Shown here piece after piece: positions 32,381-52,928 of a stretch of 53,126 bases of DNA. The notes under the pieces are model-generated. The model was not told where the DNA came from and ran no database searches. It saw only the letters and a program-made list of their open reading frames with translations. This stretch comes from Magnetococcales bacterium. GTDB lineage: Bacteria > Pseudomonadota > Magnetococcia > Magnetococcales > UBA8363. The stretch spans positions 1 through 53,126 of the forward strand of contig JACSDG010000003.1 in assembly GCA_015660855.1 (NCBI GenBank), given 5' to 3'. Both the position numbers and the translations under genes were made by a program. Each line of letters starts with the position of its first letter. The stretch's first letter is position 1.

Positions 32381-32568
32381 CCATAACAGATCTTGGTTTG
32401 TGGGGTATGATGGGGTATTTAGAGGGGGGTAGCCATCGAGTGTCGCGGATGGCAACGGTTAGAACGACAGTGGGAACCGACTGCAAAAACCGTAACCTGA
32501 CATCAAGGAGAAAACTGGACACCATGCACACACCATTGATGCCCGCATGTTTCAGGGTCCGGCCATGA
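32371..32568 (+). CDS. Possible upstream small ORF coupled to the hybrid kinase
   Basis: A 65-codon frame starting at GTG 32371, or at internal starts such as ATG 32524, ends with TGA overlapping the kinase ATG at 32565 (ATGA). No protein family is visible. AAGGAGA lies 13 bases before the ATG at 32524, too far for a good site. It may be chance, or a leader that couples translation of the kinase. Low confidence. Confidence 0.2.
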   Translation: MDKPITDLGLWGMMGYLEGGSHRVSRMATVRTTVGTDCKNRNLTSRRKLDTMHTPLMPACFRVRP

Positions 32569-35500
32569 TCCGGTTTTTCAGCCGCCATCCTGTAAAAATC
32601 CTGGGGCTTTCTCTTATTGCCGGATTTTTCTGCACTTTTTTGCCGTTGTATATCGCCTGGGATCATTCTTTAGGCCAAAATCGCAAATTGCTGTCCAGAG
32701 AAAACGAGTTGTTGGTGCAAAATCTTTCCGGGAGTCTGGCGTCCGGGATTCAGCATGTCCAGGATTTGGCACTGCTGACGCAGATTACAGGGCAGGTGAC
32801 GCGGGATGATTTTAAAATTTTTTCCAAAGCGTTGCTCGCACGCCGTTCCATTTTGCGGGTCACCCTCTACATGCCCCTGCTGTTCAGCAAGGATTTGCCC
32901 GCTTTCAACCAGAAAATGACGGAACTGGGGTTTGCACAGGCCCAGGAAAAGGATATGCAAGGTCCATGGATGGCCAAGCACTCCGAGGAAAAGGTTCATC
33001 TACCCATCGAGTATATTGAACCATTCACCACAAAAAACAGTGAACTCTTGGGGCTGGATTTTTTTTCTCATCCCGACATTGAAGCCACAATCGAGCGTTC
33101 ATTGGTCAGTGGTTTTCCTATTTTTTTACCTAATTTCAATCTTTTCCCCGAAGCAAAAAACATGCTGCTTGTACAGGCTGTCTACTCTGGGCGTAAAGAA
33201 CCTACAACCTATGAGGAACGAAAATTACAGTTCTCCGGCGTCATGGCACTGCTGCTGTCAACAGAAGATCTGATAACGGCAAACATCTCCCCGGAATTGG
33301 ATATCAGCCTGTCTCTGGAAACCGTCCCTATCCCCCCGGAACGGACCATTGGACACCAGAAAATTTTTCATCGATTGGACTCTTCGGACAGCCATGGCAA
33401 AATTGTTTTTTCCAGACTGGATACACGCCAACAATTTTTTTCAACCCCATGGCAATCATTCCATTTGAATATTACCAAAAATATTCACTGGGAAGAGATG
33501 GATGTTTTATTTCTACTGACCGCACTGATTATGGGTCTTGCCTTTGGCGTATTGGGGTTGCTTTTTATTGGGGGAATGATTGTCAGAACAAATCTGTTAA
33601 CGCATCGTAACGAAGAGGTTGAACAGGAGTCCCGACGACAGGCTACCATGTTGAAACTGGTATTGGATACCATTCCGGTACGCGTCTTCTGGAAAGATAT
33701 ACATGGGTGTTATTTGGGATGCAACCAACGGTTTGCCCTCGATTCGGGTTTCCAATCCACAGGAGAAATCCTTGGAAAAACCGATGCTGACATGCCCTGG
33801 CGCGAACACGCCGGGAACTATCGCCTGGATGATTATAACGTCCTTTCCTCGGGCAAGGCCAAGTTAAATATTGAAACCATGCGAACGACCCAGTCTGGAA
33901 GGGAATTGTGGCTGCGGACCAGTAAAATTCCTCTACCGGGGTTGGACGGAGAACTTCTTGGAATTCTGGGTGTTTACGAGGACATTACCCAGCGCAAGGA
34001 AATCGAAGGATGTTTGCGGGAACAGGAAGGGCGGATGCGCCTGGTACTCGACAACGCCGGCGAGGGTATCATCACCATCAACTATTCCGGGATCATTGAA
34101 TCCTTCAATCTGGCGGCCTCAAGATTGTTTGGTTATGCCGCTGACGAAGTCATTGGATTGAACGTCAAGCTATTGATGCCCGAACCTTATCGCAGCAAAC
34201 ATGACGATTATATCCGCCAATATATCAAAACAGGCACCGGAAAACTTATTGACAACGGGCGTGAGGTGGAAGGGGTGCGCAAGGATGGAACCGTTTTTCC
34301 CATTTTTTTGACGGTCAGCCAGTTGAAGGTCAATGAGGAACTTTTATTTACCGGCATCATTCGTGATCTGACACGGGAGAAAGAAAAAGAAACGGAACTC
34401 CTCAAACTTTCGAGCGTTGTCGAAAACAATCCTAACGCCATCATTATCACAGATCTTAATGGCAATATTGAATATGTCAATCCCCAGTTCATGGAAATAA
34501 CGGGATATGGTGCCAGGGAAGTTCTTGGGAAAAACCCAAGGATACTTAAATCGGGTCTTGACCCGGAAAAATATAAAAATCTATGGAGCACCATCCAATC
34601 GGGACAGGTATGGCGCGGCGAATTTCACAATAGAAGGAAGGATGGCACCCTTTATTGGTCCGGGGCCACTATTTCTTCCATTGTTGATAAAGAGGGGAAA
34701 ATTATCCGTTTTGTGGGGGTGTCCCGTGACATCACCAAACAAAAAGAGAATGAAAGAAGGGCAAGAGAGGCCGAAAATCGTAGAGAAAAAAGTGACATGC
34801 TGTTGATGATGTCCCTGGAATCGATTCGGGATGGGTTTGCCATTTTTGACGGCAATAATCGCTTGGAAATATGGAACAATGCCTTTCACGAACTGCACGA
34901 CAAGGTGGCCGACCTGATCATTGCTGGTACCACCTACGATGAAATTCTCCGGGCGGCGGTGGAACGGGGACAAATCACCAAATCGACCGAATATCGGGAT
35001 CCCCTGCTCAACGACCGGGTCAAACATACCGATCGGTTGATTCAAACCTTTGAAGAGGAATTCAGCGGCAATCGTTGGATACGAATATCGGAAAGTCAGA
35101 TGATGGATGGCAGCAGCGTGGTGGTGTATTCGGACATCACTTCGCTGAAAATTGCCACTGCCGAAGCGGAAGCGGCGGCACGGGCCAAAAGTGAATTTTT
35201 GGCCAACATGAGCCACGAAATACGTACCCCCATGAATGCCGTCATCGGTTTGTCCCATTTGTGCCTGCAAACCCCTTTGGCTCCCAGACAAAAAGATTAC
35301 ATCCAGAAGGTTTACAATTCGGCCACATCGTTGCTGCGGATCATCAACGACATCCTTGATTTTTCCAAGATTGAAGCGGGCCGCCTGGATATGGAGGCCA
35401 TCGATTTCACCCTGGAAGAGGTGTTGGGAAACATGGCTGCGGTAATGTCTCTGAAAGCGCAGGAGAAAAACCTTGAATTCATTCTCGATACTGCGGCCGA

Positions 35501-38117: not shown

Positions 38118-40615
38118 CCTCGGACAGGCCACAAAATGGAAGATTTTCCCGCAACCACTTGCTCCAACCGGTGGGTTACTTGTGCCACCACACCCATCCA
38201 ATCACCATGCGCGGGTTGGCGAAACAGACGCAGACCGGGATACCAAGGGCTGTCTTCACGGCCAAGGAGCCAACGCCAATCCGGACTGAAAGGTAAAAGC
38301 ACCCAGGCAGGACACCCCAAACTTCCAGCCAAATGAATCACCGACGTGTCCACCGCCAATACCAGATCCAAATGAGCCATCAACGCAGCCGTCTCGGCAA
38401 AATCAGTCAACTTGTCCGAATGGTCAATTAACCTCCCCGAACCGGCAAGCAAATCCAGTTCACTCCGGTCCGCCCCTTTTTGCAGATTGAAAAAACAACA
38501 ACCGGGAACATTTAATATGCGGGCAAATAATTTCGGATCCATGGAACGATTGTGATCGTTTTTATGTTGACTGTTGCCACGCCAAGCCACGCCAACCTTC
38601 AATCCGTCAACCCCCTCTAGATACCGCTGCCAGGTTGCAACCGCCACGGAATCCGCTGCCAGATAGGAGGGACGACTGGGAATGGTTTCCACTGTGACTC
38701 CCAATACCAACGGTAAACTTTGTAACGGAATCTGCAAATCCACAGGCCCCAATTTTTCGGTTTGAATTACCAAACGATCCATGCCCTGAGCACTGGTAAA
38801 CAATCTTCCCAAGGAGCGTGGACACACCACCGTCACCACCCCCCCGGCCGCTTTGACCATGGGGGCAAAGCGAATGTACTGGATACTGTCGCCAAACCCC
38901 TGTTCGCAATGTAACACGATGGACTGCCCCTCCAGAGGAGAACCATCCCATTGGGACTGGTCATACCCATGCCCGCCAAAATGCGGCATACGCCAACGCC
39001 ACTCATAACCAGGCCACCCCCCCTTGAAATCACCCGTCAATAACCGCACCAAACTTTCATTAAACCAGGCCTCGGCAAAGTCGGGTTGGTAGTGCTGCGC
39101 TGCTCGACAGGCCGCAATCGCCTCGGCAAACCGCCCCAGCTCCATGTAAGCGACCCCCAGATTGGAATAGGCCTCAAAATGTTCCGGTTTGAGGGTCAAC
39201 GCCTTCTGATAACAGGCAATGGCTTGGTCAAGCTTGCCCTGAAAGCGCAGGGCATTGCCTAGGTTGGACCAGGCTTCTGGAAAATTGGGCTTGATGTCGA
39301 GTGCTTGCCGATAAAGAGCCACGGCCTCATCCAGCCGTTTCAAATCCTGGCAGGCATTGCCCAGGTTGGACAGGGTTTCGGGATGATTGGGCCTGAGTTG
39401 TAATGCCCGTTGAAAATGGGCAATGGCCGCTTGAATATCTCCCTGTTTATGCAGCACCGCTGCCAGATTGACCAGGGCTTCCGGGTAATCCCTGCGTATT
39501 TCGAGGGCAAGGTTAAGGTTGGCGACAGCTTCATCCCGGCGTCCAAGTTTATGGCAGGCCAGTCCCAGGTTGGCCAGGGCTTCATGGAAACGTGGCTGGA
39601 TGGCCAAAGACTGGCGGTAATAACCGATGGCCTCCTCCAAGCGTCCCATTTCTTGGCAGGCATTGCCCAGGTTGGCCAGGGCTTCAAAGAAGTCGGGTTT
39701 CAACGTCAAGGCCAGACGAAACCTGGCCATGGCTTCTTCTGGTTGTCCCTGTTCCAAAAGGACAACCCCCCACATGGAAATCGCCTGGGGCATGTCGGGT
39801 CGGATGTGCAACGCCTTTTTAAATTCCTCGATGGCCTCCGGCAGTCGCCCCTGTTTACGCAAGGCATTACCCATATTGCATAAAGCCTCCGGGTGGTCCG
39901 GTTGCATGGCCAAAACTTGGCGAAACTTATCCTTGGCGGCTTCCATATCGCCTTTTTCCAAAAGCAATACCCCCAGGTTGCACAGGGCACTGCTGGCATC
40001 AGGCTTTTGTTTGAGCACCTGTCGATAGCACGCCATGGCTTCGTCCAACTGTCCCATGCCCTGATAAATGGCCCCCAGATTAGCCAAGGAACCGGGATCA
40101 TCCGGTTTGCGTGCCAGAACCTGGAGATACCGCTCCCGTCCCTGTTCCATTTCACCCAGATGTTGATGGGCCAATCCCAGATTGAACATGGTTGCCGTAT
40201 CATCGGGAAAACGTGCCAGGAGAGACATGAACGCCTGCTTGGCTTCACCAAATCGCCCCTGGGACAACAACAGCCCCCCCAAACCGGCCAACGCCCCAGG
40301 AAAGTCCGGGGTCTCTTTGATAACCTGCCGAAAACAATTTTCCGCATCATCCGCCCGCCCCAAAGATTGAAGTATAAACCCCAAATTATTGCGTGCATGG
40401 ACAAAATCAGGTTTGACCGTCAATGCCAACCGAATGGTTTCGACGGCTTCTGCATTGCGTCCCCCCTGGTGCAGGAGAATCCCCAATAGGTGCAAGGTTT
40501 CGGGCTGATGGGGATCTACGCCCAGAATTTGTCGACAGATGGCCTCGGCCTGGGCTGTTTGACCACTATCGATGGCCTGGTGTGCAAGTTCCAAAGCCTG
40601 TTGCAGATTCAACAT
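38114..40615 (-). CDS. TPR-repeat protein with GT9-like C-terminal domain
   Basis: An 833-residue protein. Residues 1 to about 530 are some fifteen 34-residue TPR units (pattern A-x-x-NLG-x-x-x-x-x-x-G-x-x-x-EA). The C-terminal 290 residues resemble the heptosyltransferase-like (GT9) fold joined to TPRs in many bacteria: LHCEQGFGDSIQYIRFAPMV, a second-domain start VGVAWRGNSQHKNDHNRS, then VDTSVIHLAGSLGCPAWVLL and PWYPGLRLFRQ. It may transfer sugars to proteins or glycans; catalysis is not proven for this type. No signal peptide. GGAG lies eight bases before ATG. The stop codon is inside a repeat tip. A link to glycosylation with the nonulosonic sugar is possible but only by proximity. Confidence 0.87.
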   Translation of the reverse strand: MLNLQQALELAHQAIDSGQTAQAEAICRQILGVDPHQPETLHLLGILLHQGGRNAEAVETIRLALTVKPDFVHARNNLGFILQSLGRADDAENCFRQVIKETPDFPGALAGLGGLLLSQGRFGEAKQAFMSLLARFPDDTATMFNLGLAHQHLGEMEQGRERYLQVLARKPDDPGSLANLGAIYQGMGQLDEAMACYRQVLKQKPDASSALCNLGVLLLEKGDMEAAKDKFRQVLAMQPDHPEALCNMGNALRKQGRLPEAIEEFKKALHIRPDMPQAISMWGVVLLEQGQPEEAMARFRLALTLKPDFFEALANLGNACQEMGRLEEAIGYYRQSLAIQPRFHEALANLGLACHKLGRRDEAVANLNLALEIRRDYPEALVNLAAVLHKQGDIQAAIAHFQRALQLRPNHPETLSNLGNACQDLKRLDEAVALYRQALDIKPNFPEAWSNLGNALRFQGKLDQAIACYQKALTLKPEHFEAYSNLGVAYMELGRFAEAIAACRAAQHYQPDFAEAWFNESLVRLLTGDFKGGWPGYEWRWRMPHFGGHGYDQSQWDGSPLEGQSIVLHCEQGFGDSIQYIRFAPMVKAAGGVVTVVCPRSLGRLFTSAQGMDRLVIQTEKLGPVDLQIPLQSLPLVLGVTVETIPSRPSYLAADSVAVATWQRYLEGVDGLKVGVAWRGNSQHKNDHNRSMDPKLFARILNVPGCCFFNLQKGADRSELDLLAGSGRLIDHSDKLTDFAETAALMAHLDLVLAVDTSVIHLAGSLGCPAWVLLPFSPDWRWLLGREDSPWYPGLRLFRQPAHGDWMGVVAQVTHRLEQVVAGKSSILWPVRG

Positions 40616-40747
40616 GGTTGGTCTCCATCAAACGGGCCACGCGGGATTGCCAGATTATGCCATGATCCCTGGCTCTTTTTTTCACGGAAATGGATAATGC
40701 CCGGCAACGATACGAGGGCAAGGTATACTTTTTCCAGGGGCCGATCG

Positions 40748-42529
40748 ATGGATGCTTCCGCTTTGCTTACCACAGTAATTCTCACCGATTCCACCACGAT
40801 CAATTTTATCATTAAAAGTGCCCTGGATTTGGATAAATTTGACGTTCACATTTTAAAATCGGCGGATCCTGATTTTTTCGCCGAGATTCTCCGACTCAAG
40901 CCCAGACTGGTCTTCATACGCACCGAACTCAGCCATGCCAAGGGAATCGATGTTTGCGACCTCGTTAAGAATTCGCCCCTATTAAAAGAAACCAGTGTTA
41001 TTTTTCTATCCTCCAATCATGATATTCGCGAGATAGCCATTGAACATCGGGCGGACCGATTCCTCAAAGTGCCATTTCAGCCACAGGACGTCAGAGACGT
41101 TACCGCCCATTTTACCGCTAGGTTGGCAACCATCCTTTACGTTGACGACAGCGACATGTTTCACAAGGTGGTCGTTCCGGCCTTGAAGGATGAAGGCTAC
41201 CGGGTTTTGGAAGCCTGGGATGGGCGTGAAGCGTTGGACATCATTGATCGCCGGGAAGAACCCATTCATCTGATCCTTTCGGATGTGGAGATGCCCGAGG
41301 TCGATGGTTTGGCCTTGTGTCAAAACGTGCGTAACAGCCTGACCGAAGACATTCCCTTTGTGTTGTTGACCTCTCTGGGGACTGAGGAGGCCATCAGCAG
41401 AGGGTTTGCGGCTGGAGCGGACGATTACATCATCAAGCCTGTCGTGATCCCGGAACTGTTGACGCGTGTAAAAAGATTGTTGACGCCTAACGCCACCAGC
41501 GAGATGGCGCGACCGGAGCGAATTTTGGTCGTTGACGATTCCGAGGTCATTCGCAACATGATTGGCAAGGCTCTCAGAACCCATGGGTTTGAAGTCGAAG
41601 AAGCCGAACATGGTTTGGCAGCTCTGAACAAAATCAGCCAGCGCAAGTATCATCTCATGGTAACCGATTATGAAATGCCCCAAATGGATGGGGTGGAACT
41701 TTGCCTGAACCTGAGAAAAATAGAAAATACATTCAACAGAATGCCCATTATTTTTGCGACATCACGGACCGGTCGGACCGATCTGGTCAAAATGCGCTCC
41801 ATTGGGATTCAGGCTTTTGTGGCCAAGCCGTTCAACTCCGACCGCATCGTTGCCGAGGTGGAGCGGGTATTGGCCGAAGCTCGATTGGAAACCAAACGCA
41901 CGGTTTTGAGTCATTATTTTGAGCATGGAAAGATTCCTCGGCTGGCAGATGCCCACAGTGGGGAAGAAACCATTGCGGATGATCAGTTTCGGATGATCCT
42001 GTATGCGGGGATCGCCAATTTTGCGCAGTTGGCCCGGAGTATGAACTCCTTGGAATTGGTGGCATTGATCAACCATTATTTCGACTGTATGGCGCAGGTC
42101 ATGGCCCGGCATGATGCCAGTCCGGAAAAATTTGTGGAGGATCGTTTTTTTACCTCCTTTGGTTGTCATGATGATGGCGGACTCAGAGCGGTATCTACGG
42201 CGGTGGACATGCTTGAAGCGGTGCAGGGACTCAACGGGAAAACGGGACACGAAATTAAAATTCGTATGGGATTACACGCCGGGCACGTCATTGTAGGCAA
42301 TATCGGTCCGCAACCCCATGATCGCAGTCTGACCTTGTTGGGCGAAAATTTACGCATCGCCCGATCATTGAAAAACGCAGCCAAGGAGAACGAAATCCTC
42401 CTCTCCGATACCGCTTTAAAGATAGTCAAGGAGGTCGTTACCACCGGGGCGGAGCAGGAAGTCCGGATTATGGGAGGGGGAACAATCCTGGTCCACCGGC
42501 TGGAATCGGTTCGTAAGGAAGCAAAGTAA
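40748..42529 (+). CDS. Triple-receiver response regulator with degenerate class III cyclase domain
   Basis: A 593-residue cytoplasmic regulator. The N-terminal receiver-like domain (about 5-125) lacks a clear acidic pocket. Two standard receivers follow: TILYVDDSD with LSDVEMPEVDG, and RILVVDDSE with VTDYEMPQMDG, each with a KP motif. Residues about 410-585 have the fold pattern of class III cyclases, but the first metal Asp is Gly421 (LYAGIANF instead of FTDxxDF), and GENLRIARSL has lost the Asn and Arg of the usual VNxAxR. It is therefore probably a non-catalytic nucleotide or protein-binding domain. ATG 40748 has AGGGG seven bases upstream; the longer open frame overlaps the divergent TPR gene and was rejected. 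Confidence 0.87.
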   Translation: MDASALLTTVILTDSTTINFIIKSALDLDKFDVHILKSADPDFFAEILRLKPRLVFIRTELSHAKGIDVCDLVKNSPLLKETSVIFLSSNHDIREIAIEHRADRFLKVPFQPQDVRDVTAHFTARLATILYVDDSDMFHKVVVPALKDEGYRVLEAWDGREALDIIDRREEPIHLILSDVEMPEVDGLALCQNVRNSLTEDIPFVLLTSLGTEEAISRGFAAGADDYIIKPVVIPELLTRVKRLLTPNATSEMARPERILVVDDSEVIRNMIGKALRTHGFEVEEAEHGLAALNKISQRKYHLMVTDYEMPQMDGVELCLNLRKIENTFNRMPIIFATSRTGRTDLVKMRSIGIQAFVAKPFNSDRIVAEVERVLAEARLETKRTVLSHYFEHGKIPRLADAHSGEETIADDQFRMILYAGIANFAQLARSMNSLELVALINHYFDCMAQVMARHDASPEKFVEDRFFTSFGCHDDGGLRAVSTAVDMLEAVQGLNGKTGHEIKIRMGLHAGHVIVGNIGPQPHDRSLTLLGENLRIARSLKNAAKENEILLSDTALKIVKEVVTTGAEQEVRIMGGGTILVHRLESVRKEAK

Positions 42530-42660: not shown

Positions 42661-42759
42661 ACGAGAAAAATATAGAAAAATCGTTTTTCTATAGTAGCAT
42701 GGAAGTTGCATATGCTTGGGCCAGTTGGGTCGATTCCTTTCCTATAGCCTGTGCGGTGC

Positions 42760-44808
42760 ATGAAAAACTTCCCATCCATGAAGAAACTTTTATTTTGTCC
42801 CCGGCGATTTCTCGGGATGCGGCTGGCGTTGCTCTTGCCTCTGGTTGCGGGGTGCGCCATCAGGACGACCCCTTTGGATCGGGCACAACTGGATCGTCGG
42901 GTCGCTTGGGACATTCGGGCCATATTTGACGACATGGTTTTTCCCAAGGAATCTCTGACCTTGGAACAAGCCATGTCCCGGGCTGTCAACCACAATCTGC
43001 AACAGCGGGTGGTGGCGTTGGAGGGGGCGTTGGCGTTGGGACTGTCTGACCTTGCGGTCCATTCCCTGTTACCCCAGGTTCAGGCTAGCGGCGATTATGT
43101 CCAACGGGACCGGACGACCTCTTTGACCCAGGATTTTTTTCAAACCTCCGCATCCCTTGAGGCGACATGGAGTGTGTTGGATTTTGGCGTCAGTTATATC
43201 AATGCGCGACAAAAATCCGACGGGGTGCTTATTTCTGGGCAACAACGGCGAAAGGCGGCTTTGGATTTAATCTTTGAGGTGGAGACGGCCTTTGGGCAGG
43301 CTTTGGTGGCCCAACGTTTGGAGGCATCCCTGGGGTCGTTGTTGCTTCGGGTTGAAAAAGCCTTGGAAAATGCCCGCGAAGTGGAACGTCAGGGGATCCA
43401 ACCAGCCCGAGAATCTTTGGATTTTCAAAAAAAACTCCTTAAAATTCTTGATCAGTTGCAAAAGTTGCAACGCCAGGTTTCTGGGGCCAGATTCAGATTG
43501 GCGGAACTGCTGAACCTGAGTTCTGGTGCGTTGCCCCCGTTGCAGGATCCTGGGTTTGTACTGCCGTTGGATATTCGGGCCTTGCCGGGCACCGCCGAAC
43601 TGGAAGAGTATGCGTTGATAAACCGGCCAGAATTGTTGGAGCGGCACTACCAGAGACGCGTCCAAGCCGATGAAAGCCGCAAGGCGTTGCTGCGTTTGTT
43701 GCCTGGGGTGGAACTGTCCAGCGGTCATCGGTATGACAGTGGTGGTATCTACGTCAACCATCATTGGGCGGAAAATGGTGTCAATCTGGCCTGGAATCTG
43801 CTCAAAGTGGTGACAGGTCCGGATATCCTCGACCAGGCGCGGGTGGAGGAGGCCCTTGAGGAGCGCAAGCGGTTGGCTTTGACCATGACGGTGATGACCC
43901 AGGTTCGGGTGGCGCATCTGGGATTGATGGAATCCAGGATAGGCTATGAAACAGCACTTGAGTTGAGCAAGGTGGATCGGCGATTGTTCGACCACGCCCA
44001 GGCGGGGCGGGATGTGGCGACGATGAGCGAGGCGCAATTGATTGAGGCTGAGGCCGACTTGCTGCTTCAGGATGCCCGGAGAGATTTGGCCAGTGCCGAG
44101 TTGTCATCCGCAGCGGCGCGTTTGTTGGTCTCGGTGGGGTTTGACCGGCTGCCGTTCGGGTTTGACACCATGGATACCCAACAATTGACCTGGGCGTTGG
44201 AGGAAATCGCCCGGCGTCCGGCTTGGGCTACCTACACTCCTCTCCGTCCCCAGGGCGAACAGGCCGGTGGCGGGGTGAAAGAATCCAAATTTCAGGGGGA
44301 GGATTCGGGGAAATCTTCCCAACGCAAAGATGCGCGAATGGCCGATCCGGTATGGACCCTGGAAAAGCCCGGTCCCACGGACCCCACCGGGGTTTTGCCG
44401 AAAAAATCCCCAGCGGATCCGGGGCTCAAATCCCGTGAGAATTCTCGGAATGGCTTTGATGGTGGGGCCGGAATGGAGGGTGGCGTGGTGTTGCGGGTTG
44501 GGGCTTTTTCGGCACTGGAAAATGCCAGAAATCTTTATTCCAGGCTTGCGGAGAAAAAATATCCGGTCACTTTGCAGCCCTTTGCGGATTCGGGGGGGCG
44601 TGTTCTCTATCATGTCAGCGTTGGACCGGTGCAGGGGGTGCGGCGGGGCCGCAAGCTTTTGGCTGACTTGAGTGATCGAGAAGGAATCAAGGCCCAGCCT
44701 GTGTTTCTGGCACCGTTTGTGGCAGAATCCCATGGTCGGGGCAGGGTGTCCATGGCCGCGCTCCATGGCGTTGACCAAGTTTTGGTTGCCAAAATGAAGG
44801 GACCATGA
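42760..44808 (+). CDS. TolC-family outer membrane lipoprotein with C-terminal SPOR domain
   Basis: About 682 residues. The N-terminus has a lipoprotein signal ending LLPLVAGCAI. The body (about 50-470) shows two TolC-like halves with long amphipathic helices (SLTLEQAMSRAVNHN, LRLLPGVELSSGHRYDSGG, DVATMSEAQLIEAEADLL). After a Pro/Gly/Ser-rich linker (about 490-570) comes a SPOR domain (VVLRVGAFSALENARNLYSRL to QPVFLAPF), which in other proteins binds peptidoglycan at denuded glycan strands. A TolC channel with its own SPOR domain is unusual. No periplasmic adaptor or pump gene is nearby. The start is uncertain: GTG 42751, ATG 42760 or ATG 42778 all lack a good site. The stop overlaps the cyclase start as ATGA. 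Confidence 0.85.
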   Translation: MKNFPSMKKLLFCPRRFLGMRLALLLPLVAGCAIRTTPLDRAQLDRRVAWDIRAIFDDMVFPKESLTLEQAMSRAVNHNLQQRVVALEGALALGLSDLAVHSLLPQVQASGDYVQRDRTTSLTQDFFQTSASLEATWSVLDFGVSYINARQKSDGVLISGQQRRKAALDLIFEVETAFGQALVAQRLEASLGSLLLRVEKALENAREVERQGIQPARESLDFQKKLLKILDQLQKLQRQVSGARFRLAELLNLSSGALPPLQDPGFVLPLDIRALPGTAELEEYALINRPELLERHYQRRVQADESRKALLRLLPGVELSSGHRYDSGGIYVNHHWAENGVNLAWNLLKVVTGPDILDQARVEEALEERKRLALTMTVMTQVRVAHLGLMESRIGYETALELSKVDRRLFDHAQAGRDVATMSEAQLIEAEADLLLQDARRDLASAELSSAAARLLVSVGFDRLPFGFDTMDTQQLTWALEEIARRPAWATYTPLRPQGEQAGGGVKESKFQGEDSGKSSQRKDARMADPVWTLEKPGPTDPTGVLPKKSPADPGLKSRENSRNGFDGGAGMEGGVVLRVGAFSALENARNLYSRLAEKKYPVTLQPFADSGGRVLYHVSVGPVQGVRRGRKLLADLSDREGIKAQPVFLAPFVAESHGRGRVSMAALHGVDQVLVAKMKGP

Positions 44809-46763
44809 ACAGGCGGTTGCTGATTTTTGTTGTCATCATGCTGGTGTCGGCACTTTTCTCCTGGTTTGGCGTTCGCTATATCGTGGTATTGGGGATGGTG
44901 GAACATTGGTTGGAGGATATTCGCATTGCCACCCTGCAACCCCCCGAGCCGCAACACCCTGATATCGTCATTTTGACCATTACCGAAGAAACCCTGGCCC
45001 GTTTTCCCTATCGGTCCCCGGTGGATCGGGCCTTCCTGGCCGACACTCTGGAGCGATTGGAAAAAGCGGGGGTTCGGGGGATTCTCGTGGATTTGTTGCT
45101 GGACCAGCCTACCGAACCCCTGAAGGATGCCCGCCTCAAGACCACATTGGTACGATTATCGGTCCCGCTGATGGTGAGTTATGGCCATGCCGAGGCGGGG
45201 TTGACCGAGGCGCAGATGGTTTTTCAGGATGAAAACATTCCTAAGGGTAGCCGGGGGTTGGCCAACCTGATGAAGGATTCCTACGATCAAATGGTCCGTT
45301 GGATTTACCCTGGCCAAAAAATGCCCGATGGGACGTTCATCCCGGCGGTTGTGCCAGGGTTGGCGGTCAAGTTGGGGGCCACCCCTGCGGTGGGGATCAT
45401 TCCTATGGCCTGGCGTGGTGCGCCGGATGCGCAGACAGGGCCTTTTCGTTTCTTTCCCTCCCATATGTTGCCCTTGCTGCCGGATGTCTGGTTCAAGGAT
45501 AAAATTGTCCTGATCGGTGCCGATCTGCCCATGACCGATCGGCATCGCAGTCCGTTCTCCCTCAAGGCGCATGAAATGGATGGTCCCGATCGGTTTGGCA
45601 CGGCAGGGGTGGTCATCCATGCCCATGCGTTGGCGCAACTCTTGGATCATCGTCCATCGCCGTTCATCGCCCAGAGTTGGCAATGGGGGTTGATCGTTGT
45701 CGCCACCTTGGGCGGGGGGGGCATGGTGGCGTTGAACCTGTGGACTGTGGTACGTTTGCTGATCATTGCCATCGCAGTGGTACTCTATTGGGTGGGTGGT
45801 TTTGTCCTGTTCAAACATGGCGGTGTGTCGTTACCGCTCCTGACACCCACCTTGGCCTTTTTGTTGGCGTTTGCCATCTGTGAAATTTATGAACGGCAGC
45901 GCGATAGGCAGCAGAAAAAATTTCTCAAGGAAGCCTTTTCCAAATATCTGTCGGCCAAGTTTGTCGATCATCTGGTCAACAATCGGGATTTTCTGGCACG
46001 CCGCGCCCAGCGTCGGGAATTGACATTGTTGTTCACCGATGTCGAAGATTTTACCACCATGTCGGAAAAGGCCGATCCTGAAACCATGGCGGTCCAGATG
46101 AACCAATATCTGGATGGGGTGTGCAATCTGTGTCTCAAGCATGGTGGCATGGTGGTGGACCTGATGGGGGATGCCGTTTTTTCCATGTTCAATGCCCCGG
46201 TCGATATTCCCGACCATGCCGCCTGCGCCGTGAACGCGGCCCTGGAAATTCGCACCTTTGCCGCCGGTTTTCAACAAACCCCGGAGGCACAAGCCTTGGG
46301 GTTTGGCCGTACCCGTATTGGTATCCATACCGGTGTCGTCCAGGTGGGCAATTTTGGTTCCACGCAGCAGTGGAAATATACTCCCCTGGGCGATGCTGTG
46401 AACGTCGCCTCCCGTATTGAAGGGGTCAATAAATTATTTGGAACCGACATCTGTATTTCCGAAATCTCGGTCCGCGCCGGTGGCGTGACCCAAAGTCGTC
46501 CCTTGGGCCATTTTGTATTGAAAGGCAAGGGAGAGGCGTTGACCATCCACGAAATCCCCCCAGAAAAACTTTATAGTCCCGATTATCTCCATAGGTATCG
46601 GTTGGCATTTTCCATTATGATCGAAGGCCAGCGTCAGGCCGAGGCACTGGAGGCGTTCTCCTCCCTGGCCCGGGAAAATCCTTTGGATTCATGCGTGGCC
46701 TGGTATTTAAGTCGGCTGCGGCAGGGGTTGGATTGTTCCCGTGTGGTGATGATGAGCAAGTAG
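44805..46763 (+). CDS. CHASE2-domain class III adenylate/guanylate cyclase
   Basis: A 652-residue membrane cyclase. A first helix (about 4-30) leads into an extracytoplasmic CHASE2 sensor (about 35-290, with ILTITEETLARFP and KAGVRGILVDLLLD). Three closely spaced membrane segments follow (about 290-360), then a cyclase domain with both metal aspartates, Asp412 in FTDVEDF and Asp456 in MGDAVF, and GDAVNVASRIE with the transition-state Asn and Arg. The lysine that usually recognises adenine (KxxGD) is Asp here (DLMGD), so the substrate is uncertain. It overlaps the TolC-SPOR gene by four bases, so one senses the same envelope as the other. Product likely cAMP or cGMP. Confidence 0.9.
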   Translation: MNRRLLIFVVIMLVSALFSWFGVRYIVVLGMVEHWLEDIRIATLQPPEPQHPDIVILTITEETLARFPYRSPVDRAFLADTLERLEKAGVRGILVDLLLDQPTEPLKDARLKTTLVRLSVPLMVSYGHAEAGLTEAQMVFQDENIPKGSRGLANLMKDSYDQMVRWIYPGQKMPDGTFIPAVVPGLAVKLGATPAVGIIPMAWRGAPDAQTGPFRFFPSHMLPLLPDVWFKDKIVLIGADLPMTDRHRSPFSLKAHEMDGPDRFGTAGVVIHAHALAQLLDHRPSPFIAQSWQWGLIVVATLGGGGMVALNLWTVVRLLIIAIAVVLYWVGGFVLFKHGGVSLPLLTPTLAFLLAFAICEIYERQRDRQQKKFLKEAFSKYLSAKFVDHLVNNRDFLARRAQRRELTLLFTDVEDFTTMSEKADPETMAVQMNQYLDGVCNLCLKHGGMVVDLMGDAVFSMFNAPVDIPDHAACAVNAALEIRTFAAGFQQTPEAQALGFGRTRIGIHTGVVQVGNFGSTQQWKYTPLGDAVNVASRIEGVNKLFGTDICISEISVRAGGVTQSRPLGHFVLKGKGEALTIHEIPPEKLYSPDYLHRYRLAFSIMIEGQRQAEALEAFSSLARENPLDSCVAWYLSRLRQGLDCSRVVMMSK

Positions 46764-46905: not shown

Positions 46906-48450
46906 ATGAGCCGTCGCAAGGATGTGCAACCGTTTTCCATCTCTTCTGGCCAGGCAGCCCCGGAAGATTTTGCGGGGCTGCATACTTTCCAAAAACTGAC
47001 CAAGGTATTGATTCGTCTTTCATCGCAGGATAGTGGTTCGGGGCCGGTGATGCCGATGTCCGGGAACGGTCTGCCGTTGTCGGAGGTGGTTGAAAATGGG
47101 GTGGAGGATCCCATCAAGGAACCATTGACGGCGAAGGTTATGGAAGGGATGCAACCGCCTCTCCCGGCCCTGCTCCCGGGGGTGGTCGCCGCAGGGTTTG
47201 CGGCACCGCCTGCCGAGCGTGCGTCGGGTGTCGGGCCGGTGCATGGTTCGGAAAAGGTCAATCCATGGGGCCGGACCTTGCTGTCGGATCAGGTTGCGAC
47301 TTCGGAGTTGCATCCGGCTCCGACGGTGAACCGGATGGCACGGCCTGGTATCGATATGACGCCCCCCCTGGAGGTTTCCGGGGGCGGTGTTCGTCAACGT
47401 CGGGGGGGGACTCTGCCGGAGCGTATTGTGGCGGTGGCGTCGGAGCTGAATCGACACGATACGGGAACGCGTGGGGAGGGTGCGGTCGTATCCACTCCGT
47501 TAAGGAAGGAAATCGGGCAGCGATGGGAAGGGGCGGAGTTGATCCGGGTTGTCGCGGGTGCGGTTGTACCTGCCCCTTTAAGGGGTGAGATCAGGGACAG
47601 TGGGCGGGTGGTGGATGGGCGAGGGGAGCCATCGGCTACGGTCCGGCATCGTCGCCCAGGGAAGTTGCCTGATACCTTGTCCGTTCATACCCCCCCTCCG
47701 GTGAAGGCCGTTGATTCGCGTTTGGAAGCGTCACCGGTCGCGCCGTCGCCGTCACCTGCCGGCAACGTGCGGATTGTCGCCAAGGTGGCCAGGAAAATGG
47801 CCCCCCCCGATGCCATGGGGCAGGAATCGAAGCCCGGGATGGTCATCGAACCGGTGCAAGCGGTTGGCGTGAAGCTTCAGGCCAAATCGCCTTTGCCGAA
47901 GGGATTGAGCGATGCCGATCGTCGCTGGCTGGTTGAGATTATTCGCGGGGTGGTGCGGGAGGAAGGGGAACGCTTTCTGGGGCAGCATGAATCTTTGATC
48001 AAAGGTTTGCTTGACGAGGTCATGGGCAGGTACACGGAGGTTTTGCGCGGTGTGGCAGAAGAATCGTTGTCTGAATACCGTTCCAGCCCCCAGGGTTCCC
48101 TGCCTGCATGGCAGGATGTCACATCGTGGATGGTCCAGGGGCAGGTTGAACGGATGCAGAGCCTTTTTGAGCAGTATCTGACCAAACCGTTTGACCATAC
48201 TTCACAAGTTACCGTTGCCGTGGGTGGTGATGGTGTGGTGTCTGATGTGGTGCGGCGGGAAGATTGGAACAGGATGGGGGAGGGAAGTGGAGGCGATGGT
48301 TTGCCGACCATGGTGCCGGCGTCCCGGCATGAGGGGGATGGTGTGGTGGTGGAGGGGCTGTTGAACGGTGTTGGGCATTTGGTGGTGGATGTGGCCTTCG
48401 GTGTCAAGCGTGGTTTGGATCAGGTGGGGCGAAAAATTGTCGGATTCTGA
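46906..48450 (+). CDS. Unknown 514-residue protein with disordered middle
   Basis: I recognise no family. The N-terminal 45 residues look folded; residues about 60-330 are rich in Pro, Val, Gly and Arg, with several loosely repeated EVVxxG/PLRxEI-like pieces (PLRKEIGQRWEG, PLRGEIRDSG), and are probably disordered. From about 335 the sequence becomes helical and charged (SDADRRWLVEIIRGVVREEG, LIKGLLDEVMGRYTEVL, MVQGQVERMQSLFEQYL), suggesting a coiled-coil or oligomerisation region. No signal peptide or membrane helix. GGAAGG lies six bases before ATG. The stop codon overlaps the next ATG (TGATG), so it is made with the 1492-residue PilZ membrane protein and is probably its partner. Confidence 0.8.
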   Translation: MSRRKDVQPFSISSGQAAPEDFAGLHTFQKLTKVLIRLSSQDSGSGPVMPMSGNGLPLSEVVENGVEDPIKEPLTAKVMEGMQPPLPALLPGVVAAGFAAPPAERASGVGPVHGSEKVNPWGRTLLSDQVATSELHPAPTVNRMARPGIDMTPPLEVSGGGVRQRRGGTLPERIVAVASELNRHDTGTRGEGAVVSTPLRKEIGQRWEGAELIRVVAGAVVPAPLRGEIRDSGRVVDGRGEPSATVRHRRPGKLPDTLSVHTPPPVKAVDSRLEASPVAPSPSPAGNVRIVAKVARKMAPPDAMGQESKPGMVIEPVQAVGVKLQAKSPLPKGLSDADRRWLVEIIRGVVREEGERFLGQHESLIKGLLDEVMGRYTEVLRGVAEESLSEYRSSPQGSLPAWQDVTSWMVQGQVERMQSLFEQYLTKPFDHTSQVTVAVGGDGVVSDVVRREDWNRMGEGSGGDGLPTMVPASRHEGDGVVVEGLLNGVGHLVVDVAFGVKRGLDQVGRKIVGF

Positions 48451-51400
48451 TGGGTCCGGCTGAAAATCCGGGTTCTGCGTTTTTTTTTATGGCTATGGGG
48501 ACGGATGGCAAGATGGAATACAGTGCAGAAATATCTTCGGATAATCCGCTGTTCCGGCACTACGGACGGTTGGCCGAGGCGTGTTTTTCCGATGATCAGG
48601 CACCGGGGGCACCTGTTTCGGTGTTTCCCAAGGGGATATCGGGTATTCATACCGGTTTGGATTCGGGGGGGTATCGCACGGGTCATCTGGAGGTCTACGC
48701 CGATAAGGAACAACTGGCCTTTGTGCAAAAGGCGGTGGATCGTCTGCGTCAGGGGTTGATGGCGGAAGCGGCGTCTTTCGGGGCGCGGTCAGGCCCGTCC
48801 GTGTCCCTTCAATTCAAAGCTTTCAGGGAAGCCCTGGTTTCTGGCCGTGAGGCCATGTTGAACGAAAATCCTTTCTATGAACTGACGGGATTGATTTTTC
48901 GCCTGAACCAGACGGCACTGAAAAATGCTTTGGCTGCCGATCTGGAAGGTGCCGACAGTGCATTGCCAGGGACCATCAAGGTATCCCGTTCATTGCGGCA
49001 TCTTTGGGGCCGGGATGGGGGTATGATCCGTCGCAGGGAAAAAGTCAGGGAAACTTTGGGAAAGTTGCTGTCGGTGGGCAAAATTGGCGTCGGATTGATT
49101 TTGTTCGTCGGATCATCCCTGACGACCGCCAAAGCGGTGTCGGACATGGCACAATCGGACTGGTTCATGGCTCATATCAGTGCGGCCTTGAGTGGTTCGG
49201 CCCATGAAAATTTTCGCAACGGCGTTGCTGTTTTGATCGGGGTCTTGTTCTCATCCGTTATTTTGGATTTTAAAAGCCGGTTGTTTCAGGGCGTTGCCGA
49301 GTCGGGACGTGTGTTTGCCGGAATGTGGGAGGCCTTCCAAAGGTTTCCCCGATGGATGTTTTTGTCTCTTTTCCTGACCGCTTTTTCCATCTGGACCAAC
49401 TATGATGGTATCGTCCTGCTGTTTTCCAAAACCCAGGATCTGGCTTATCAATGGGGAAAGATTGAAGGGCAGGTGTCGATTGCCCTGGGTGATCCGAAAA
49501 ATCCCAATGTGGCGAATCCAAACTCCCTGGCTGATCTGAATGTGGCGATGGAAAGGACGGTCGCCGATGCCATTGTCCGCTTCAACCAAGTTGTGCTGGA
49601 TGAAATGTCGGGGGCCGCCTCCAGTGGCAAGGCCGATAAAGGTCCCCGGTACTGGGCTAAATATTTTATTGTCCAGGGGGGGTACGTTCCCGGAACGACC
49701 GATGTGACGCGCTCTTACAAAAATTCCACCGCTGCCGTCGGCATCGATAAACTCCTGGTGGAATCAAGATTGGACTTTAAAACACCACTTGAGGAAAAAT
49801 TAAGAAAAATTGTAAAAAAATACGCAGATGAATATGAAAAAACACGGGAAAATGTATCAAGGGACATGTCTGTCCTGGGTCAGCAAATGGTTATGAAAAA
49901 TTATTCCCTGGCCGAACTGAATGCCCTGTTTGCCCTTGAGGCTTATCATGTCAACGAGAGTGTAAAAAAGGTGGTGGCGCAACTGGAGGCCAACACTAAG
50001 GCCTTTGCCGAGGTAACTCAGGAACTCAAGCAGGTGGTTTCTGAGTATGTGGCCTTGTTGCGCAGGATAGATCAATACGGTATACCCACCAACACCCAGT
50101 ATACCATCGACATACCTGTGGTTGTTCCCCATGTGGAAGCCATCGACCGGTTGAAACAGGGAGGTATTTCCGAGGCCAAACGGCGCAGTCTGGAGGAGCT
50201 GCGGCAGTTCCTTTTTGAAGTTTACGGCACCATTCTTGGGGCGGGAATCCTGGGTTTGATTTTGTTTTTGGCCGTGTTCATGGACCTATCCGACCCCATT
50301 CTCTACAGCACGATGGTGGCACGCTGGGGGCGGAGGGACCGGCATTTTCTGGAAGATAATCAACAGCATTTACAACTTTGGGAAGATGTTTTCGTGCGTC
50401 GGTTGCGCAGTTTTTTTGTTCGTCCCGAAATACGTCCCGTGATGCCTTCGCTGTCTTGCCCTGGGCATTTGGTTTTTCACTATGTTTTTCATCACCACCT
50501 TGAGGAAATTTATCCCCACACCAAGGATCCCAGTGTTCGGACTACCGTGGAAAGTCTTCGTTTTTGGTTTGCCGAACTGTTTTCCAACACCCGGATGATT
50601 GGGGTATTGGGTTACAACAACCGGCAAATGGCCATTCGTCGGTTCATCAGGAACAGGGAAGTTTACGCGCCGCAGTTGATTAACCGTCTTTTCCCAGGTT
50701 TTCTGAGTCCTTTTACTCCGGGGGCCAACCACTTTGATCTGTTGCGCCTGGAAATAGCCAGCGGAATGGCAGGTATGGAAAAACGGTTTCATGCGGAGTT
50801 GGAAGAGATACAGAAAAGGGTGGGGGCCGGAGGATCGGATTCGGGGGGGGATGGTCAAGCGAAGAAGGGAGTGGCTTTTTGGATCGGGCGATTGTTGACC
50901 GGATCCTTCAGGGGTCTCCCGGATCCCTGCCCCATGACGCGCAACAGTTGGCTTGAGCGTGTGGCCAAAATGCGCAGTGGAACCGAATCCAGCCAACATT
51001 ATCTGGCCTCGTTTGTCCCCATCCTCAAGGATTGGCTGGCTGTCAGCAAGTTTCCCCATCTTCAGGAGGCAACCATCCAACCTTTGGAAAGGTTGCTTCA
51101 GGGGATTCCCAATCGCCGGATGTTGGAAGAAGCGTTGGACTTGCAGGTCGCCTACGAACAACTGGAGCAGCTTAAGCGGGCACTCACGGATATCGTAGGG
51201 CTTTCCATGTTTTATGGGGAGGTGCTGGATGCGGCGGGTATGCAGGCCATTTTGTCCTCGACCGATTTCCCGGAAATCGCGGAAATTTTTCTGTTCCGGC
51301 GGCAGGATATTTCTGTTCTGGAAAAACGATTGGAGGGCATCAAAGTCAAACTGGACTCGGTACATTATGTCCTCAGGGCGTTGGTGGAGAATCAGGAAGC

Positions 51401-52928
51401 CGTTGTGGAAGTGTTGACCCGGATTCGCACGCATCATCTGAGTCCCATGAAAGTCATTCTGGAGCGTATGGAGAGTCGGTCTTTCTTTGAAAAATCTTTG
51501 CGGTTGGATGTGCTTTTTCGTGACCTGATCGGTATGGAGCGTTTCATGATGCGTTTGTGGGATGCTTTGGATGAGGAAGATGTTTCGTTGCGGGAGCAGG
51601 ATGTTGTGGATTCGGGGGGAAAAGGCGCCCATGCCAATCCTTTGTTACGCTATCTGGTTTGCAGCCAGGGAGCGTCGCAGTTGACGTTGCTGGATCAAAT
51701 GGGACAACTGGAGGAGCATGCCGACGAAACCCATAAAAAACTCAATGCCATCGTCTTTGTGTTGACTTTTGTGGACAAACTGGCAATCAAGGTCAGGGGG
51801 CAGTTGGAGGAAATTCTTGACATGCAGCATTCGGTGATAGAAATCGATCATCGTAACAGGGCTATGGTGTTGGGTGGTGCGGCGGCGGTTGAACGCAGGT
51901 TTTTGGAGTTCATGGAGAACAATCGTTTGTTTTTCCTCTCCCTCCCTGGGAGGGTCGGTACCCTGTTTGAAAAAGTTGACTCGTTGCTTCAGGATCCTGG
52001 GGTGGCTGAGGCGCATAATGTGGAATTGTTTCGTGGGGTGGAAAGCCGGACGTTCAAGCTGCATCAATTTATGAAACATTCCCTGGAGTTCTTTGATGGC
52101 CGGCGTGATCGGTTGGAATTGCCGCCATCATTCGCGTTTTCCGGCACGGTGGAGGGGGATGTTTCCGGAAACAGGGTGTTGGAAGGTACGTCATTGGGTG
52201 CGGATAGCGACAGTCCTGAGGTTATTGGTCAAACGGTCAAGCGTATTCGTACTTGTTTGCGGGAGATCAGTCTGGCGGAGTGGGATCTCCTGAAATTGCC
52301 GATTCCGCCGCAGTCCGTCATGGAAATATTTGAAGCCAACAGAAATTCTATTGAACGCTCCTGGGTGGAGACCGAAAGGATACAATCCGCGCTGGAGCGG
52401 GGTTCGACGGAGGGGGAGCCGGTCCATTTTGCGTTATTGGGTGAAGATGCCCGTGCCCTGCTGAACACTCTGGATTCCATTCAAAAACAGGTGGTTGTTT
52501 TGCCGATTGTGGATCGTCGTTTGTCCAGTGCTCACGCTGTGGATCCAACAACGGGACGGCGTTTGGTCGATAAGGTGGATGATTTCTGCAAAACCCAGGT
52601 CAGTTCTCGACGATCCATGGAACGGGTGGTGGCGCATCATCCGGTGGAGCTGCGTTTTCCCGGTGTGGGGACTTTCAAAGGGGTTATCCACGATGTCAGC
52701 AAAACCGGGGTTTGCGTCGAGACCGATCAACCGCCGTCAAACGGCCTCAAACAGGAAATGGACGGATCCATCCGTCTGATTTCCGACAAACAAGGTAACA
52801 AGATCAACTGTCGGGTGAAGCGTTTGACTGGACACATGCTGGGTTTGGCGATTGATGAGGCCAGTCAGGCTGGATTTTCCCAGGTGGTGCGCAGGGAAAT
52901 TACCGGGGGTAAGGCGAACGTCGGTTAG
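48450..52928 (+). CDS. Unknown large membrane protein with C-terminal PilZ domain
   Basis: A 1492-residue protein I cannot place in a named family. Four membrane helices are visible near 210-230, 255-272, 302-325 and 593-613. Between the third and fourth lies about 265 residues, probably periplasmic and partly coiled coil (SVKKVVAQLEANTKAFAEV). After the fourth helix some 770 residues of mostly helical cytoplasmic sequence follow. The end is a PilZ domain (about 1385-1480) with RSMER and DVSKTG, both c-di-GMP-binding motifs intact. It starts on the stop codon of the 514-residue gene; an internal ATG 48489 is an alternative start. Inference: a c-di-GMP-controlled envelope machine, perhaps linked to motility, adhesion or export. 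Confidence 0.85.
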   Translation: MGPAENPGSAFFFMAMGTDGKMEYSAEISSDNPLFRHYGRLAEACFSDDQAPGAPVSVFPKGISGIHTGLDSGGYRTGHLEVYADKEQLAFVQKAVDRLRQGLMAEAASFGARSGPSVSLQFKAFREALVSGREAMLNENPFYELTGLIFRLNQTALKNALAADLEGADSALPGTIKVSRSLRHLWGRDGGMIRRREKVRETLGKLLSVGKIGVGLILFVGSSLTTAKAVSDMAQSDWFMAHISAALSGSAHENFRNGVAVLIGVLFSSVILDFKSRLFQGVAESGRVFAGMWEAFQRFPRWMFLSLFLTAFSIWTNYDGIVLLFSKTQDLAYQWGKIEGQVSIALGDPKNPNVANPNSLADLNVAMERTVADAIVRFNQVVLDEMSGAASSGKADKGPRYWAKYFIVQGGYVPGTTDVTRSYKNSTAAVGIDKLLVESRLDFKTPLEEKLRKIVKKYADEYEKTRENVSRDMSVLGQQMVMKNYSLAELNALFALEAYHVNESVKKVVAQLEANTKAFAEVTQELKQVVSEYVALLRRIDQYGIPTNTQYTIDIPVVVPHVEAIDRLKQGGISEAKRRSLEELRQFLFEVYGTILGAGILGLILFLAVFMDLSDPILYSTMVARWGRRDRHFLEDNQQHLQLWEDVFVRRLRSFFVRPEIRPVMPSLSCPGHLVFHYVFHHHLEEIYPHTKDPSVRTTVESLRFWFAELFSNTRMIGVLGYNNRQMAIRRFIRNREVYAPQLINRLFPGFLSPFTPGANHFDLLRLEIASGMAGMEKRFHAELEEIQKRVGAGGSDSGGDGQAKKGVAFWIGRLLTGSFRGLPDPCPMTRNSWLERVAKMRSGTESSQHYLASFVPILKDWLAVSKFPHLQEATIQPLERLLQGIPNRRMLEEALDLQVAYEQLEQLKRALTDIVGLSMFYGEVLDAAGMQAILSSTDFPEIAEIFLFRRQDISVLEKRLEGIKVKLDSVHYVLRALVENQEAVVEVLTRIRTHHLSPMKVILERMESRSFFEKSLRLDVLFRDLIGMERFMMRLWDALDEEDVSLREQDVVDSGGKGAHANPLLRYLVCSQGASQLTLLDQMGQLEEHADETHKKLNAIVFVLTFVDKLAIKVRGQLEEILDMQHSVIEIDHRNRAMVLGGAAAVERRFLEFMENNRLFFLSLPGRVGTLFEKVDSLLQDPGVAEAHNVELFRGVESRTFKLHQFMKHSLEFFDGRRDRLELPPSFAFSGTVEGDVSGNRVLEGTSLGADSDSPEVIGQTVKRIRTCLREISLAEWDLLKLPIPPQSVMEIFEANRNSIERSWVETERIQSALERGSTEGEPVHFALLGEDARALLNTLDSIQKQVVVLPIVDRRLSSAHAVDPTTGRRLVDKVDDFCKTQVSSRRSMERVVAHHPVELRFPGVGTFKGVIHDVSKTGVCVETDQPPSNGLKQEMDGSIRLISDKQGNKINCRVKRLTGHMLGLAIDEASQAGFSQVVRREITGGKANVG

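What the first reader, a model, noticed from the sequence alone, without database searches (positions are those of the whole stretch)
46906..52928. Undescribed two-gene c-di-GMP membrane system (514 + 1492 residues)
Two translationally coupled genes encode a largely disordered protein with a helical end and a four-helix membrane protein with a large cytoplasmic part ending in a complete PilZ domain (RSMER, DVSKTG). Neither matches a family I know. The arrangement suggests a membrane complex switched by c-di-GMP, close to a cyclase and a TolC-like channel.
Basis: partly seen in the sequence, partly recalled or inferred. Interest (0 to 1): 0.65.

Follow-up and report, generated by a model that had tools for sequence, protein, structure and literature searches.

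The report
c-di-GMP membrane protein of motor islands
A large membrane protein with a c-di-GMP sensor domain, found only in magnetotactic cocci and their relatives, is repeatedly encoded beside an unusual, sometimes giant-tailed relative of the bacterial rotary motors MotAB and ZorAB, so it is probably the signal-controlled part of an undescribed cell-envelope machine.

Summary
The two genes are real (46906-48450, 514 aa; 48450-52928, 1492 aa). ORF2 has four membrane helices, a periplasmic helical domain, a long cytoplasmic helical part and a complete C-terminal PilZ domain. Its N-terminal 966 residues fold confidently but match no solved structure, and no family library knows them. "Translational coupling" is doubtful. 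The neighbouring cyclase is a class III (cAMP/cGMP) enzyme, not a diguanylate cyclase.

ORF2 belongs to a family confined to Magnetococcales: 27 of 47 genomes of the order, none outside it, often several copies. Nineteen of 65 distinct members lie within 10 kb of a divergent ZorA-like and/or ZorB-like (MotAB-type) gene, 18 of 19 on the same strand. These ZorA-like proteins carry tails up to 4,577 aa (one in this genome) and a Lys where Zorya ZorA has Ala; their ZorB-like partners carry Glu instead of the ion-carrying Asp. SPOR-domain proteins recur beside them. In M. marinus MC-1 the operon directly follows mamT of the magnetosome cluster.

Best reading: ORF2 is the c-di-GMP-sensing regulator of a new, PG-anchored ZorAB-like motor system. 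For the window's own copy this rests on orthologues, since its contig ends just downstream. Function is untested.

The parts
42751..44808 (+). TolC-type outer membrane efflux protein (685 aa) with C-terminal SPOR domain; overlaps the next gene by 4 nt
   Evidence: Pfam OEP E=8.5e-23, SPOR E=7.4e-8; same order OEP-cyclase-ORF1-ORF2 in two other genomes (L050/L051)
44805..46763 (+). CHASE2 + class III adenylate/guanylate cyclase (652 aa), not a diguanylate cyclase
   Evidence: Pfam CHASE2 E=3.8e-27, Guanylate_cyc E=5.2e-19
46906..48450 (+). ORF1, 514 aa, Pro/Gly-rich, predicted mainly disordered, probably helical C-terminal third; found only with the closest ORF2 orthologues
47398..47418 (+). 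first copy of a short motif RRxGxLP in ORF1 (residues 165-171)
   Evidence: conserved in all four ORF1 orthologues, nearly absent elsewhere in the loci
47650..47670 (+). second copy of the RRxGxLP motif in ORF1 (residues 249-255)
48450..52928 (+). ORF2, 1492 aa from the first ATG (the true start may be 48489, 48495 or 48513): 4-TM protein with C-terminal PilZ
49065..49127 (+). TM1 (about residues 206-226)
   Evidence: hydropathy and AlphaFold helix 195-234
49221..49277 (+). TM2 (residues 258-276)
49368..49424 (+). TM3 (residues 307-325) with the near-invariant polar motif S..TNYDGIV (313-322)
49428..50225 (+). inferred periplasmic helical domain (residues 327-592) with conserved ASSG....GPRYW.KY....GGY...G..D
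   Evidence: conservation; side of membrane inferred from positive-inside pattern and the PilZ domain
50232..50288 (+). TM4 (residues 595-613)
50295..52590 (+). long cytoplasmic helical region (about residues 616-1380), variable in length across the family
   Evidence: models; conservation
52608..52877 (+). PilZ domain (residues 1387-1476) with RRSMER (52608-52625) and DVSKTG (52692-52709)
   Evidence: Pfam; structure and fold match; motifs

Best explanation
ORF2 is the c-di-GMP-sensing inner-membrane regulator or adaptor of a divergent ZorAB-like (MotA/TolQ/ExbB-superfamily) motor of the cell envelope. In the family's standard set, a ZorA-like protein with a very long cytoplasmic tail and a one-helix ZorB-like protein with an OmpA or SPOR peptidoglycan-binding domain form the PG-anchored, ion-coupled core. 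A periplasmic SPOR protein (TPR-SPOR, or OEP-SPOR as in the window) links it to the wall. ORF2 sits beside the core through its four helices, and its PilZ domain gates or brakes it when c-di-GMP rises, as YcgR-type PilZ proteins do with the flagellar stator. ORF1 would be a disordered linker to ORF2 in this genus. Shown by computation: the family, its domains and fold confidence, restriction to the order, and linkage to ZorA/ZorB-like and SPOR genes. Inferred: physical complex, ion flow, gating, and which ZorA-like protein the window's ORF2 serves (probably the 4,577-aa one on contig C164).
For: 19 of 65 distinct family genes lie within 10 kb of a ZorA/ZorB-like gene, 18 of 19 on the same strand, chance about 1% each. 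Linked members are spread over several clades of the family tree, including the window's sister branches L052, L053, L082 (support 0.997). Strong ZorA-like hits occur in 22 of 27 genomes with the family and 1 of 21 without (Fisher 5.7e-8; 12/17 vs 1/21, 2.4e-5, after removing genomes that supplied the profile). The profiles match solved ZorA (8qyk, E=3.4e-20) and a solved MotB-related ZorB (8vvn_B, E=8.8e-13). In MC-1, G025 and G029 the genes form one same-strand set ZorA-ZorB-200aa-ORF2 family-350-147-TPR, the last with SPOR. SPOR proteins recur, including TM(Glu)+SPOR proteins beside the giant ZorA genes. Intact PilZ motifs in about 20 members; 33 GGDEF matches in the genome.
Against: The window's ORF2 has no ZorA/ZorB gene beside it: its contig ends 198 nt after the stop, and G001 and G006, which share its OEP-cyclase-ORF1-ORF2 order, lack a detected orthologue of the giant ZorA. 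About 70% of family genes show no strong ZorA/ZorB neighbour, although many contigs are short. Members of about 1107-1280 aa lack PilZ. Lys/Glu at the ion site may mean that the core does not conduct. No contact or complex was predicted.
Confidence: 0.5

Rival explanations
1. A c-di-GMP-switched secretion or export machine: ORF1-ORF2 with the adjacent TolC-like channel form a trans-envelope exporter.
For: OEP-SPOR and CHASE2 cyclase lie upstream on the same strand in the window and in G001 and G006; cellulose synthase is a known PilZ-gated exporter and heads the fold matches of the PilZ part.
Against: No ATPase, synthase or HlyD-type adaptor in the set; the OEP gene is absent beside the G005 orthologue and was not clustered beside other family members.
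Confidence: 0.15
2. A Zorya-like anti-phage defence variant in which the ORF2 family replaces ZorC/D/E as the effector or sensor.
For: ZorA/ZorB homology of the linked genes; genuine ZorA-ZorB-ZorC genes exist in other Magnetococcales genomes.
Against: No ZorC, ZorD or ZorE found among the linked genes tested. ZorB-like carries Glu, not Asp, and ZorA-like Lys in TM3, unlike the genuine Zorya copies in the same order. Multi-copy and widely conserved in the order, with an operon conserved in MC-1 relatives.
Confidence: 0.12
3. The ZorAB-like core is not a motor but a non-conducting, PG-anchored scaffold; ORF2 and the long tails position structures inside the cell.
For: Lys in the ring helix and Glu on the axle could form a permanent salt bridge; tails of 1,000-4,500 aa; SPOR/OmpA anchors.
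Against: Glu can carry protons; the polar TM2 Thr/Ser of ZorA is kept in most copies.
Confidence: 0.13
4. ORF2 acts alone as a membrane c-di-GMP receptor; the neighbourhood reflects hitch-hiking in shared islands.
For: Most family genes, including the window's, have no ZorA/ZorB neighbour; magnetosome regions are exchanged between these genomes (PMC6783814).
Against: Linkage far above chance, same strand, in separate clades and families, plus genome-level co-occurrence.
Confidence: 0.1

Closest known systems
ZorA/ZorB of Zorya anti-phage systems (linked genes, not ORF2)
   Same: ZorA-like TM core plus long cytoplasmic tail (PDB 8qyk, E=3.4e-20) and ZorB-like TM plus OmpA domain (8vvn_B, E=8.8e-13); paired genes
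   Different: Tails up to 4,577 aa against about 700; Lys for Ala in TM3; Glu for Asp in ZorB; SPOR can replace OmpA; no ZorC/D/E found; ORF2 family and TPR-SPOR instead
PilZ flagellar-brake proteins (YcgR, MotI) acting on MotAB stators
   Same: PilZ c-di-GMP receptor linked to a MotAB-superfamily motor
   Different: Those are small soluble proteins; here PilZ is the end of a 4-TM protein of about 1,490 aa, and the motor is not flagellar
Bacterial cellulose synthase BcsA and other membrane proteins with C-terminal PilZ
   Same: PilZ at the cytoplasmic end of a multi-TM protein; top fold matches of the PilZ part
   Different: No glycosyltransferase domain; the N-terminal 966 residues have no significant PDB match (best E=0.44)
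Tol-Pal and other PG-linked 5:2 motors
   Same: 3-TM ring protein, 1-TM partner with PG-binding domain, periplasmic TPR protein in the gene set
   Different: No TolA/TonB-type arm seen; very long cytoplasmic tail; ORF2 family; SPOR domains

Membership tests
PilZ domain (PF07238), c-di-GMP-binding type | profile match above curated cut-off | tested here: met
   27.6 bits against cut-off 22.5
PilZ domain (PF07238), c-di-GMP-binding type | RxxxR and D/NxSxxG motifs | tested here: met
   RRSMER 1387, DVSKTG 1415
PilZ domain (PF07238), c-di-GMP-binding type | PilZ beta-barrel fold | tested here: met
   model and Foldseek matches 4i86, 8u0i
PilZ domain (PF07238), c-di-GMP-binding type | binds c-di-GMP | not testable with these tools
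   needs ITC or MST
Any described family for the ORF2 N-terminal core | match in Pfam, NCBIfam, PADLOC, PHROGs or PDB | tested here: not met
Zorya system (linked genes) | ZorA homologue | tested here: met
   PADLOC ZorA1 down to E=9.4e-28; NCBIfam hit below its curated cut-off; PDB 3.4e-20
Zorya system (linked genes) | ZorB homologue with ion-carrying Asp | tested here: not met
   homologue present, but Glu (Gln in one copy) at the site
Zorya system (linked genes) | ZorC/ZorD, ZorE or ZorF/G | tested here: not met
   none among the linked genes tested by PADLOC or NCBIfam; ZorC found beside genuine copies in G013 and G010
Zorya system (linked genes) | anti-phage activity | not testable with these tools
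   needs plating assays
Diguanylate cyclase (44805-46763) | GGDEF domain | tested here: not met
   CHASE2 + class III cyclase
Magnetosome gene cluster | window genes lie beside mam genes | tested here: not met
   no mam gene recognised among the window genes examined, and MamK homologues lie on other contigs (C146, C160); a paralogue on C146 and the MC-1 copy do lie near mam or MamK genes

The most novel reading that the evidence does not exclude
Magnetococcales build a second-messenger-gated, peptidoglycan-anchored rotary (or torque-bearing) machine with a Lys/Glu instead of Ala/Asp ion site and a cytoplasmic tail that could reach several hundred nanometres. ORF2 is its c-di-GMP switch. In M. 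marinus MC-1 and relatives it is part of the magnetosome locus, where the tail holds or drives the MamK/magnetosome chain against the cell wall.
Probability: 0.13. Interest if true: 0.93.

Novelty: new variant of a known kind. Interest (0 to 1): 0.7.

Why it matters
It would add to the 5:2 ion-motor superfamily a branch with an altered ion-site pair, the longest cytoplasmic tails I know of in it and a dedicated membrane PilZ regulator, i.e. motor control by c-di-GMP outside the flagellum. The linkage to mamAB in cultivated M. marinus MC-1 makes a testable proposal for how magnetosome chains are fixed to the envelope in cocci, which to my knowledge is not settled. It also gives a functional lead for hypothetical proteins that recur in magnetosome regions.

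Tried and rejected
Single-sequence scan of genome contigs with ORF2 found nothing; the alignment was needed. PHROGs, PADLOC, NCBIfam and PDB sequence searches with the ORF2 core gave only chance-level hits. Fold search of the N-terminal model: nothing significant. Idea that ORF2 is itself MotA-like: rejected, because TM3 and TM4 are separated by about 270 residues and nothing matched. Idea that the window's cyclase feeds the PilZ domain: rejected, wrong cyclase class. Idea that a ZorA-like gene lies just beyond the contig end: not supported; G001 has a CheW/CZB-domain gene there (G006 has a gene of the same cluster), and this genome's giant ZorA lies inside contig C164, away from its ends. Idea that all ZorAB genes near mam loci belong to the ORF2 system: rejected; G013 and G010 carry genuine Zorya-type ZorA/B/C. 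Promoter/terminator scan gave no more sites than shuffles.
Full report
WHAT IS THERE. The window is one whole contig (C201, 53,126 nt) of a 4.5-Mb, 238-contig genome whose relatives are Magnetococcales MAGs and, by its exact length of 4,719,581 bp (identification from memory), Magnetococcus marinus MC-1 (G018). The order on the + strand is: triple-REC + class III cyclase (40490-42529), OEP + SPOR (42751-44808), CHASE2 + class III cyclase (44805-46763), ORF1, ORF2. The first ATG of ORF2 overlaps the ORF1 stop by one base, but homology starts near residue 27 and orthologues leave 60-209 nt between the genes, so coupling is not established.

ORF2 ANATOMY. Above its curated cut-off Pfam finds only PilZ (1387-1476). 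AlphaFold with 40 family members gives residues 20-985 at mean pLDDT 82.7, essentially all helical; with 24 members, residues 815-1492 at 80.5 with a clear PilZ barrel. The N-terminal model has no significant match in the PDB (best E=0.44); the PilZ part matches known PilZ domains. Signatures: TM3 S..TNYDGIV and a periplasmic ASSG....GPRYW motif. Topology (N and C termini inside) is inferred from charge pattern and the PilZ domain.

FAMILY. 27 of 398 genomes sampled evenly across the phylum carry the family; all are in the window's order (47 sampled) and about 350 outside have none. An independent scan of GTDB representatives returned only Magnetococcales. Copies per genome run from one to several. 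About 20 distinct members keep both PilZ motifs; others have decayed motifs or stop before the domain. ORF1 is found only beside the four closest ORF2 genes; it carries a short RRxGxLP motif, twice in three of them.

Clustering the genes around 44 family members showed two recurrent neighbours: long proteins matching ZorA models (PADLOC down to E=9.4e-28) and ZorB-like proteins (5.8e-27). Profiles of these match solved ZorA (8qyk, 3.4e-20) and a solved MotB-related ZorB (8vvn_B, 8.8e-13). Of 65 distinct family genes, 19 have one within 10 kb, 18 of 19 on the same strand, against about 1% by chance (the binomial value treats genes as independent, which they are not fully). Linked members sit in several clades of the family tree, including the window's own branch. 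Genome-level co-occurrence is 22/27 against 1/21.

DEPARTURES FROM ZORYA. In the ORF2-linked ZorA-like proteins TM3 reads S.KF/S.KL or close variants (one has Asn for Lys), where two genuine Zorya copies in the same order read STAF; the linked ZorB-like proteins carry Glu at the start of the helix (one Gln), where genuine copies read SD.MSAL. No ZorC/D/E was found among the linked genes tested, whereas ZorC (EH signature) sits beside the genuine copies in G013 and G010. Tails are long: whole proteins of 1,065 to 4,577 aa in unbroken frames, the longest in this very genome on contig C164. Tail composition (2.7% Pro, 8.5% Gly) does not suggest one continuous coiled coil, so a length of about 650 nm (0.15 nm per residue) is only an upper bound. 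Beside that giant gene lie a probable cNMP-binding protein and a TM(Glu)+SPOR protein; the TM+SPOR arrangement recurs in G005 and beside L053/L082. TPR-SPOR proteins take that place in MC-1 and others, and OEP-SPOR in the window. The shared parts are a ZorAB-like core, a SPOR or OmpA wall anchor and the ORF2 family.

MAGNETOSOME CONNECTION (not the window's own copy). In MC-1 the mam genes mamH to mamT run on one strand and are followed directly by ZorA-like, ZorB-like, a 200-aa gene, the ORF2 homologue, two small genes and a TPR-SPOR gene. ZorA- or ZorB-like genes lie within 25 kb of a MamK homologue in 30 of 46 genomes, and ORF2-family genes in 12 of 26. Some of these ZorAB genes are genuine Zorya, and magnetosome regions move horizontally (PMC6783814), so proximity alone does not show shared function. 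That paper already notes a MotB-like, an EH-signature and an apolipoprotein-like gene near the cluster of strain UR-1; I read these as ZorB, ZorC and ZorA. I found no description of the ORF2-linked set, in a library that lacks most subscription journals.

MECHANISM. Most likely ORF2 senses c-di-GMP and gates or couples a PG-anchored ZorAB-like core (about 0.5). For the window's copy the partner is inferred: orthologues L052, L053 and L082 have a giant ZorA-like gene downstream, and this genome's giant ZorA N-terminus closely resembles that of G005, but lies on another contig. Complex formation, ion flow, c-di-GMP binding and phenotype are untested.

NOVELTY. The ORF2 core is a new protein family without a known fold match; the linked motor is a new variant of a known kind. 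Hence 'new variant of a known kind', with a larger claim kept as the novel case.

Noticed in passing
G018:C1 (MC-1), about 2859300-2903400; loci L063, L157, L158, L159: The ZorA-like/ZorB-like/ORF2-family operon starts about 12-15 nt after the 167-aa magnetochrome (mamT-like) gene, same strand as mamH-mamT: apparently contiguous with the mamAB operon.
   Followed up: yes
G000:C164, locus L126 1682-15415 (-): Single open frame of 4,577 aa, ZorA-like at its N-terminus, flanked by a probable cNMP-binding protein, a TM+SPOR protein and a sigma-54 activator resembling RtcR/PspF.
   Followed up: partly
G000:C160, locus L132 9017-9979 (-); L148, L150, L151, L152, L153: A protein with a ZorB-like helix (Glu) and a C-terminal SPOR domain lies next to mamH/mamE/mamK in six genomes of the window's genus.
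   Followed up: partly
L162 225-8276, L166 17234-19464, L167 1-3503: Zorya type I-like ZorA/ZorB/ZorC genes close to mamH in genomes G013 and G010; the 'EH signature/MotB/apolipoprotein' trio reported near the cluster of UR-1 (PMC6783814) is probably the same.
   Followed up: partly
L132 9017-9979, last about 35 codons; about 45 places in G000: A short dispersed DNA repeat of about 100 nt, many copies in this genome, runs into the end of the SPOR protein's frame.
   Followed up: no
window 32547-37430: 1,627-aa hybrid histidine kinase with PAS domains, BarA/TorS-like.
   Followed up: no
L053, L054, L060, L061, L062, L067 next to ORF2-family genes: Small cNMP-binding-domain proteins, some fused to hemerythrin, recur beside ORF2-family genes, hinting at cAMP/cGMP input besides c-di-GMP.
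   Followed up: partly
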